8,859 bases of DNA, taken from positions 1 through 8,859 of the forward strand of contig JASLXW010000144.1 in the NCBI GenBank assembly GCA_030740135.1, written 5' to 3'. The DNA is from Nitrospinota bacterium (GTDB lineage: Bacteria > UBA8248 > JACPRG01). This document shows positions 2,741-7,079 of the stretch, piece after piece (position 1 is the first letter of the stretch; the number at the start of each line of letters is the position of its first letter). The notes below the pieces were generated by a model that had not been told where the DNA came from, did no database searches, and was given only the letters and a program-made list of their open reading frames with translations. A program made the position numbers and the translations under genes.

Positions 2741-3274
2741 TTACGCGTCCAGGTCCACCCCCAAACCGTTCGCCCGGCGGTTGGTGTAGTTGAAGTAACC
2801 GACGATCTGCACCACGTCGAAGATGTCTTCGTCGGTCATCCCTTCCTCCCGCATGGGCGTCAGGTCCGCTTCCGACACCTCTTTGGGGTGCAGGGTCAGC
2901 TTCTCGGAATACTCCAGCATCCTCATCGTCCGGGCGTCGATATCCGCTTTCCTGAAATCCTCCATGATCTGCCGGGTGAGCGCATCGTCGCCGGTTTCTT
3001 TACGGAGAGACCCTCCGTGATTGTCCACTCAGTACTCGCACCCGTTGACGGCGGAGACGACGATGGCCACCATTTCTCTCTGCGCCCGGGACAGGCCCGA
3101 TGGTCCGTAGAACACGGCCTCGTAGAGCGCGCTGAGCCCGAACAGCACGCTGGGCCTCAGGCTGGACAACTTGAAGATGCCCCGGACGCACCCGTCTCTT
3201 TCGATGAGCTTGTCGTAGAACTCCTTGATCTCGCCGGTCGCTTCAGCGGGCTCGATCTGCCGAACATACGCCAT
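2741..3274 (-). CDS. AhpD-like peroxidase-related selenoprotein, in-frame UGA read as selenocysteine
   Basis: This is a member of the carboxymuconolactone decarboxylase/AhpD superfamily, closest to the 'uncharacterized peroxidase-related enzyme' group, thiol-dependent peroxidases of the cytoplasm. The start chosen is ATG at 3274, with AGGAG six bases upstream. A TTG seven codons earlier overlaps that site and is less likely. Residues 1-81 run to NGCEY, then comes TGA (3029-3031), then 95 further residues in the same frame beginning VDNHGG and ending RANGLGVDLDA. Read through, the product is 177 residues, normal for this group. Spacing matches the AhpD active site of Mycobacterium tuberculosis (E118, C130, C133, H137): E67, C79, position 82, H86. 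The UGA therefore replaces the peroxidatic cysteine, giving CxxU. A SECIS-type hairpin follows at once. UGA ends other genes here, so the code is not reassigned. The GTG at 3028 is a false start for the distal half. A nonsense mutation is the alternative but fits the hairpin poorly. Confidence 0.9.
3002..3018 (-). promoter_or_regulatory. Bacterial SECIS element for selenocysteine insertion
   Basis: In the mRNA, ten bases after the UGA, the six-base stem ACGGAG (3018-3013) pairs perfectly with CUCCGU (3007-3002) around the loop GGUCU (3012-3008). The SelB-binding loop of Escherichia coli fdhF SECIS also contains GGUCU. There the conserved guanines lie about 18 bases after the UGA; here the first loop G is 17 bases after it. 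The element lies inside codons H86-R91, so these bases both encode protein and form the RNA signal. The match is by eye; SelB itself is not in this window. Confidence 0.85.
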
Positions 3275-3406
3275 CTTCCACTCCTCCCTCCTCAACCCGG
3301 GTTGTCAGCGTCGGCGACATGGCGGACCGGATAGCCCTTTTCCACGTCCCCCTTGCCGACTGAATCACCTCGCCCTCTCCAAACGAGAAAAAGACACGGC
3401 GCTCGT

Positions 3407-5944: not shown

Positions 5945-6063
5945 GGACAATTTGGGCGCATTGGCGGGGTGCTGAGACAATCCACCGATGGCGATTCATT
6001 CGAAGCGCGAACCCCAAGATCATCGCTTGGCAAGAAATCCGGGCTGATCCAATCATTCAAGAC

Positions 6064-6093
6064 TTGACTCCATCGCGTATCCGATCACATATT
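6064..6093 (+). promoter_or_regulatory. Candidate sigma70 promoter for the methyltransferase gene
   Basis: TTGACT (6064-6069) matches the -35 box in 5 of 6 positions. CATATT (6088-6093), 18 bases later, matches the -10 box in 4 of 6. The leader would be about 105 bases and would include the inverted repeat at 6097-6117. Confidence 0.35.
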
Positions 6094-6096
6094 TCT

Positions 6097-6117
6097 CGGG
6101 GGTGTGATTCACGCCCG
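6097..6117. promoter_or_regulatory. Inverted repeat overlapping the expected transcription start of the methyltransferase gene
   Basis: CGGGGGTG (6097-6104) and CACGCCCG (6110-6117) form an 8-bp dyad with one mismatch around TGATT. It sits immediately after the candidate -10 box, where a bound repressor would block initiation. A role as operator is inference from position only. Confidence 0.3.
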
Positions 6118-6206
6118 ACCCGGCAATCCGATTCAGGTGAGAAATCCGCTCAAGCCCGAAAAAGACTTTCTCAACAACTTGCCGGTGGTCATTCCAGGAG
6201 AAGTTG

Positions 6207-6857
6207 ATGGAAAATGTCGTTGGCGCCCAGCATGAATTCCACGACGATCAGTACGCTCATGAATGGTCCAACCGCTTTGTTCCAACCCCTGAACGTCTCC
6301 AACTGTTTGACGCCATCATCGACCGAATCACCGGAACTTCTTTGCCTTCACGTCACATTGTCGAGTTGGGCATCGGCCCGGGCTATCTTGCCGCGCGACT
6401 ATTGGAAGCAATTCCCGAGGTCACTTATGAAGGGATCGACTTCTCCCGCTCGATGCTTGAGCTGGCGGCCGCTCGTCTTGCTTCCCATGCTTCCCGGGTT
6501 CAGTTCACGCAGGCGGATCTGACAACGGAAGATTGGGGGGAAAGGATTTCACGTCCCGTCGGGGCCATTGTTTCGACCTGGGCTTTGCACGATCTCGGGA
6601 GCGAGATGAACGCCCGGAATGTCTATCGAGCCTGTCGTCGGCTCCTTCCGGAAGGCGGAATGTTGCTGAATGGAGATTTCGTGAAACCGGACGGGGCCAA
6701 GCAAGAATATGAACCGGGACGGTTCCTGATATCACGCCATCTTGAGATTCTTCAGGAAGTCGGATTTCAAGAGGCCCAATGCTTGATCATGCTTGAAGAA
6801 GAATTGGAGAATCCAACGGCCGCCACCAATTATGCTTGTCTTCAGGCGGCTGCATAA
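6207..6857 (+). CDS. Class I SAM-dependent methyltransferase
   Basis: This 216-residue protein has the Rossmann-type methyltransferase core. Motif I is VELGIGPGYLA (52-62), followed by the acidic strand end GIDFSRSMLELA (76-87), QADL (102-105), and the motif IV region STWALHDL (123-130). LLPEGGMLLNGDF (146-158) precedes the final strands. It transfers a methyl group from S-adenosylmethionine to an unknown acceptor, and no substrate-specific domain is visible. Start is ATG at 6207 with AGGAG six bases upstream; a TTG directly before it is in frame but too close to that site. Of the first 34 codons only 17 end in G or C, against 27 of the first 34 in the MBL gene. This suggests a different origin from its neighbours. 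It stands alone, between a divergent PPOX gene and a converging amidohydrolase. Confidence 0.88.
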   Translation: MENVVGAQHEFHDDQYAHEWSNRFVPTPERLQLFDAIIDRITGTSLPSRHIVELGIGPGYLAARLLEAIPEVTYEGIDFSRSMLELAAARLASHASRVQFTQADLTTEDWGERISRPVGAIVSTWALHDLGSEMNARNVYRACRRLLPEGGMLLNGDFVKPDGAKQEYEPGRFLISRHLEILQEVGFQEAQCLIMLEEELENPTAATNYACLQAAA

Positions 6858-6868
6858 GAGATGTCAAC

Positions 6869-6890
6869 GGGGTCAGACTCAATTTTCGAC
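6869..6890. repeat. Sequence resembling REP/IS-associated intergenic repeat
   Basis: Twelve bases after the methyltransferase stop is GGGGTCAGACTCAATTTTC followed by GAC. From memory, closely similar GGGGTCAGAC-type sequences recur beside REP-associated (Y1/IS200-like) transposases in many bacterial genomes. No transposase is present here, and a second copy was not found in this window. If real it is a remnant. Confidence 0.35.
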
Positions 6891-6937
6891 AGACGCACCT
6901 CTTTATGAATCAATAAGTTATGGTCGAGACAGAAGAA

Positions 6938-6979
6938 GCGGGAGGGCGCAGGGCCAACCGACCCTCGGCCCTCCCCCGC
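6938..6979 (-). terminator. Strong hairpin, likely terminator of the hydantoinase B/amidohydrolase transcript
   Basis: GCGGG-AGGGC (6938-6947) pairs with GCCCT-CC-CCCGC (6968-6979), with a two-base bulge. An inner AGGG/CCCT helix extends it, and the loop is about eight bases. On the minus strand it is followed by TTCTTCT, a pyrimidine run, about 100 bases beyond the amidohydrolase stop. On the plus strand no T-run follows, so it probably acts on the minus-strand transcript. Confidence 0.55.
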
Positions 6980-7079
6980 GAAGAGAACCACCGAGATCGG
7001 ATTACATCCGAATCAGCGCGACAGTCCTACCCAAACCGGTTTTCAGCACCCCGCCATCGCTCGATGCCGTAACGAAGCA

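What the first reader, a model, noticed from the sequence alone, without database searches (positions are those of the whole stretch)
2741..3274. AhpD-like selenoprotein hidden behind an in-frame UGA at the active site
Seen: two adjacent minus-strand ORFs share one frame and are separated by a single TGA. Joined, they give a 177-residue protein of normal family length. Known: AhpD uses a CxxC pair plus Glu and His (E118, C130, C133, H137 in M. tuberculosis), and AhpD-like selenoproteins have been described from genome surveys. Here E67, C79, position 82 and H86 reproduce that spacing exactly, with UGA at the peroxidatic position. Inference: UGA encodes selenocysteine, giving a CxxU peroxidase. 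Routine annotation would report two fragments or a pseudogene.
Basis: partly seen in the sequence, partly recalled or inferred. Interest (0 to 1): 0.9.

Follow-up and report, generated by a model that had tools for sequence, protein, structure and literature searches.

The report
Selenium version of AhpD-like enzyme
Two adjacent gene fragments are almost certainly one redox enzyme in which an apparent stop codon is read as selenocysteine at the active site; this is another example of an already catalogued kind of bacterial selenium protein.

Summary
On the minus strand, 3274..2741 is one frame interrupted by a single TGA (3031..3029). Read through, it is a 177-residue protein of NCBIfam TIGR01926 (peroxidase-related enzyme, AhpD/CMD fold), with E67, C79, UGA82 and H86 in AhpD spacing. 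The break is not a local accident: of 24 half-length relatives of the N-terminal half, 23 end exactly at the C-x-Y before residue 82, down to 44% identity. Full-length relatives carry mostly Cys there (9 of 11; Trp in 2), and stop and Cys forms are interleaved on a tree. A hairpin 16 nt after the UGA, with a GGUCU loop, fits the published bacterial SECIS model, but this is weak evidence statistically. TGA is an ordinary stop in three other genes here. The best reading is a CxxU selenoprotein. No genome is held, so selB and tRNA-Sec could not be tested. Novelty is low: a 2026 review already lists 'AhpD-like protein, TIGR01926, CxxU' as a selenoprotein family. This is a new member of a known kind, possibly from a Tectomicrobia-like bacterium (weak inference). 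Peroxidase activity is inferred, not shown.

The parts
2741..3274 (-). AhpD-like (TIGR01926) selenoprotein gene, 177 residues with UGA read as Sec, TAA stop
   Evidence: AlphaFold model (Cys in place of Sec) mean pLDDT 93.7
3029..3031 (-). in-frame UGA, residue 82, second redox position of CxxU
3038..3040 (-). TGC codon of Cys79, the partner in CxxU
3002..3018 (-). candidate bacterial SECIS hairpin: 6 bp ACGGAG/CUCCGU, loop GGUCU, loop 16 nt after UGA, -7.7 kcal/mol alone
   Evidence: model limits from the Fig. 2 legend of PMC13188914 (passage)
3281..3288 (-). Shine-Dalgarno-like GGGAGGAG before the ATG at 3274
   Evidence: read from the sequence by eye; not scored by any tool

Best explanation
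The two ORFs are one gene. The UGA at 3031..3029 is decoded as selenocysteine by the SelB/tRNA-Sec system, directed by a bacterial SECIS hairpin just downstream. The product is a 177-residue all-helical AhpD/CMD-fold thiol oxidoreductase of the TIGR01926 family with a C79-E-Y-U82 redox motif at the start of a helix. By analogy with AhpD (recalled), the selenolate at 82, activated through E67 and H86, would attack a peroxide or similar oxidant, form a selenenyl-sulfide with C79 and be reset by a cellular thiol donor. Shown: one frame, family, shared stop position, Cys in relatives, predicted fold. Inferred: Sec insertion, SECIS function, catalytic cycle, substrate.
For: Joined protein: TIGR01926 at 157.6 bits, Pfam CMD. 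Short relatives of the N-half: 23 of 24 end at C-x-Y directly before the stop. C-half: 6 of 7 hits begin at residue 83 (sequences). Some N and C halves share source and contig length, e.g. 16768 and 1101 bases, and are similarly conserved (80/74%, 84/81%). Of 11 full-length relatives 9 have Cys and 2 Trp at 82; E67, C79 and H86 are invariant in all 12 rows. Tree of 35 rows: the stop label needs 5 changes, at least 3 forced by supported branches, e.g. P0029 (stop) pairs with P0002 (Cys). The hairpin fits the bSECIS model; 565 of 20000 synonymous recodings reach its energy, 151 of 20000 also with a GG/GU loop. TGA ends three other window genes, so it is not Trp throughout. PMC13188914 lists 'AhpD-like protein, TIGR01926, CxxU' among prokaryotic selenoproteins (passage).
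Against: No genome is held, so selA, selB, selD and tRNA-Sec are untested; none was seen in the window (tRNA scan; Pfam on the seven other genes). No Rfam match at gathering score in the window, nor at E up to 10 around the UGA. The SECIS scan also passes at 189 of 2188 codons of other window genes, the hairpin passes the energy limit only narrowly (-7.7 against -7.5), and an 81-nt fold is no more stable than shuffles (z 1.27) with another minimum structure. The codon behind the relatives' stops was not seen, only proteins. Two relatives have Trp at 82, and P0026, 97% identical over 79% of the N-half, is frameshifted.
Confidence: 0.93

Rival explanations
1. A decaying pseudogene or a sequencing error: the TGA is a chance nonsense mutation of an ordinary Cys codon.
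For: One base from TGC/TGT; P0026, a very close relative, is frameshifted in the same gene.
Against: The same break recurs in 23 of 24 short relatives at 99-44% identity, from several data sources; the C-half is conserved (74-96% identity in 7 C-half hits), with no other stop in this frame before the TAA.
Confidence: 0.03
2. Two separate polypeptides: translation stops at UGA and restarts at the GTG next to it (TGAGTG).
For: GTG directly follows the UGA; gene callers report the C-half as its own protein.
Against: The break would cut the CxxC/U motif and a helix predicted at residues 80-94; by eye no GGAGG-like motif precedes the GTG; single-chain relatives mostly have Cys there.
Confidence: 0.02
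3. UGA read as another amino acid, e.g. Trp, by recoding or a variant code.
For: P0004 and P0008 have Trp at position 82 in the database.
Against: TGA ends the metH-like, MBL-fold and aldo/keto reductase genes in the window; Trp cannot take the Cys role; those Trp may themselves be UGA translated under another table (not testable here).
Confidence: 0.02

Closest known systems
AhpD-like selenoprotein family, TIGR01926 / COG2128, CxxU (PMC1088965; listed in PMC9312934 and PMC13188914)
   Same: Same NCBIfam family, same CxxU motif, single Sec, Cys homologues (passages)
   Different: No functional difference known; the listed example MCB9421940.1 was not compared
NF041238 AhpD_rel_CFYUT, alkylhydroperoxidase-related (seleno)protein
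   Same: Related by sequence; 50.1 bits over residues 58-176; listed with CxxU
   Different: Far below its cut-off of 175 bits, so not a member
M. tuberculosis AhpD (1lw1)
   Different: 10% identity, Foldseek E 0.036; TIGR00777 30 bits against a cut-off of 191.95
Solved relatives 6k40, 3c1l, 2pfx, 2prr, 2oyo (named AhpD, putative antioxidant defence protein or peroxidase-related protein by depositors)
   Same: 32-35% identity over nearly the whole length, TM 0.87-0.92 to the model
   Different: Cys at the Sec place in the three whose alignments were shown (3c1l, 6k40, 2pfx)

Membership tests
TIGR01926 peroxidase-related enzyme | score above curated cut-off 81.8 bits | tested here: met
   157.6 bits, residues 3-173, with C in place of U
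TIGR01926 peroxidase-related enzyme | E, CxxC/U and H active-site residues (roles recalled from AhpD) | tested here: met
   E67, C79, H86 invariant in 12 of 12 rows; position 82 is UGA
Bacterial selenoprotein | in-frame UGA aligned with Cys of homologues | tested here: met
   Cys in 9 of 11 full-length relatives, Trp in 2
Bacterial selenoprotein | bSECIS hairpin: stem 4-16 bp, loop 3-9 with G in first two places, 16-37 nt from UGA, MFE <= -7.5 | tested here: met
   6 bp, loop GGUCU, 16 nt, -7.7 (limits); weakly discriminating, 189 of 2188 control codons also pass
Bacterial selenoprotein | selA, selB, selD and tRNA-Sec in the genome | not testable with these tools
   no genome held for the window
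Bacterial selenoprotein | selenium in the protein | not testable with these tools
   needs 75Se labelling or mass spectrometry
AhpD sensu stricto (TIGR00777) | score above 191.95 bits | tested here: not met
   30 bits
NF041238 AhpD-related (seleno)protein | score above 175 bits | tested here: not met
   50.1 bits

The most novel reading that the evidence does not exclude
The selenoenzyme is not mainly a peroxidase but a reductive selenolate enzyme on another substrate, for instance dehalogenation as in the debrominase Bmp8, whose fold it shares (TM 0.82-0.84, 11-12% identity).
Probability: 0.06. Interest if true: 0.5.

Novelty: new member of a known kind. Interest (0 to 1): 0.22.

Why it matters
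It adds a well-supported member, and a set of metagenomic relatives, to a selenoprotein family that gene callers split into fragments: 23 of the 24 short N-half hits are database entries cut exactly at the UGA place. It also points to repeated Cys/stop switching within one subfamily. It changes annotation rather than biology; the enzyme's real substrate remains unknown.

Tried and rejected
Pseudogene, split protein and Trp-recoding readings were considered and rejected (see rivals). Rfam gave nothing. The genome-contig scan with P0001 (Cys at position 82) gave 36 pattern matches and one relative, a distant one in a Hyphobacterium MAG; the scan was then spent, so DNA of close relatives, and hence SECIS covariation and the identity of their stop codons, could not be examined. 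Samples of Pseudomonadota: 60 of 150 genomes matched at E <= 0.001 and 97 of 398 at E <= 1e-10 (the two samples overlap). In one search no listed match had an internal TGA and one had a TAG; the codon at position 82 was not read in those matches. In one search five matches with E of 2e-11 or weaker had one internal stop: two TGA and three TAG. The two TGA regions were fetched and the three TAG ones were not. One TGA region (L014) has TGA at the CxxU place. In the other (L015) the family-like frame reads CSFC, and the TGA lies 52 codons upstream, before a likely start. A viral-contig pattern gave 0 matches. Plasmid records gave 525 matches, all under 60% identity; stops were not examined. Literature searches.

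Full report
What is there. On the minus strand, 3274..2741 is one reading frame of 178 codons broken once by TGA at 3031..3029 and ended by TAA. With the TGA read as one residue it gives 177 residues. It lies convergent to a cobalamin-dependent methionine-synthase-like gene and divergent from an MBL-fold hydrolase, so it looks like a single-gene unit, with a Shine-Dalgarno-like GGGAGGAG before ATG 3274 (by eye).

Family. NCBIfam TIGR01926 matches at 157.6 bits (cut-off 81.8) over residues 3-173, across the UGA; the named AhpD (TIGR00777) and CFYUT selenoprotein (NF041238) models are far below cut-off. Pfam gives CMD. An AlphaFold model, with Cys at 82, on a 12-row alignment (mean pLDDT 93.7, pTM 0.89) matches 6k40, 3c1l, 2pfx, 2prr and 2oyo at TM 0.87-0.92 and 32-35% identity. 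E67, C79 and H86 are invariant in 12 of 12 rows. Residue 82 lies near the start of a helix, 80-94.

Is the UGA chance? The full protein search gave 17 hits, 11 of them full length. At position 82, 9 of the 11 have Cys and 2 Trp. The other six are halves that end before or begin after the UGA place. A search with the N-half gave 24 hits: 23 end exactly in C-x-Y, the 24th (P0026) is frameshifted. A search with the C-half gave 7 hits, 6 beginning at residue 83 and one further in. Starting at 83 partly reflects that a start-like codon happens to stand there. Several N/C pairs share a source and contig length (for example 16768 and 1101 bases), consistent with two halves of one gene; that pairing is inferred. 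On a tree of the N-half (35 rows: window, 23 stop fragments, 9 Cys, 2 Trp; P0026 dropped) the stop label needs 5 changes, at least 3 forced by supported branches, against a mean of 9.7 in shuffles, so it is clustered but not one clade; P0029 (stop) pairs with P0002 (Cys). Repeated Cys/stop switching at a redox residue is what is expected of Sec and hard to explain by decay. The stop codon itself was not seen in these relatives.

The SECIS. Downstream of the UGA lies ACGGAG-GGUCU-CUCCGU, loop 16 nt from the UGA, -7.7 kcal/mol alone. It satisfies the bSECIS limits given in the Fig. 2 legend of PMC13188914 (passage), the energy limit of -7.5 only narrowly. Its weight is modest: 565 of 20000 synonymous recodings of the same 25-residue peptide reach the energy, 151 also with a GG/GU loop, and the scan passes at 189 of 2188 codons of other genes in the window. 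Folds of the first 30 to 60 nt after the UGA contain the hairpin, but a fold of the 81 nt from 3040 has z 1.27 and a different minimum, with a five-pair part of the hairpin in its centroid. Rfam finds nothing.

Code. The metH-like, MBL and aldo/keto reductase genes end in TGA, and none of the seven other genes examined has an internal stop, so UGA is not generally sense here.

Machinery. No genome is held, and the window has no tRNA. The organism is unknown. One 68%-identical fragment (P0029) is labelled 'Candidatus Tectomicrobia bacterium'. [quoted passage not shown] These are leads, not tests. As a side observation, one Pseudomonadota genome (G140) carries a distant AhpD-like gene with TGA at the same place (CPF-UGA, L014), a hairpin fitting the same model, and a tRNA-Sec at 71.2 bits with UCA anticodon. 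The family's cut-off alone does not separate: 4 of the 8 genomes given to (a hand-picked part of those searched), and 5 of its 14 controls, pass it. The other 7 genomes score at most 48.3 bits against a cut-off of 47, and the one of these hits that I checked (L022) is a tRNA-Ser. This shows the pattern in another branch of the superfamily but says nothing about the window's genome.

Known or new. PMC13188914 (2026 review; passages) lists 'AhpD-like protein, TIGR01926, CxxU' with example MCB9421940.1; PMC9312934 (passages) lists the same example under COG2128; PMC1088965 (passages) reported 27 AhpD-like CXXU sequences in Sargasso Sea data, and PMC2398784 (passages) 299 'AhpD-like 1' (COG2128, CxxU) in ocean samples. 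The finding is therefore a new member of a catalogued selenoprotein family.

Function. By homology this is a thiol/selenol oxidoreductase. The roles of E67, H86, C79 and U82 are carried over from AhpD from memory. Related folds include a debrominase (6ohi/6ohj), so the substrate is open.

Noticed in passing
L014 (G140:C1:4443400-4444250): A distant AhpD-like gene in a Pseudomonadota genome with in-frame TGA at the CxxU position (GCPF-UGA), a hairpin fitting the bSECIS model, and a tRNA-Sec elsewhere in the genome (L021).
   Followed up: partly
P0004 and P0008, residue aligned to 82: Two relatives show Trp at the Sec/Cys place (CHYW). It may be UGA translated with another table, or a real TGA-to-TGG change; DNA not available here.
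   Followed up: no
P0026 (relative on a 34,099-base contig): A close relative of the window's N-half (97% identical over 79%) is frameshifted around residue 64: strain-level decay or an assembly error.
   Followed up: no
window 6000-7000: G+C drops to about 0.55 against 0.58-0.70 elsewhere, over a SAM methyltransferase gene with GC3 0.56; perhaps acquired DNA.
   Followed up: no
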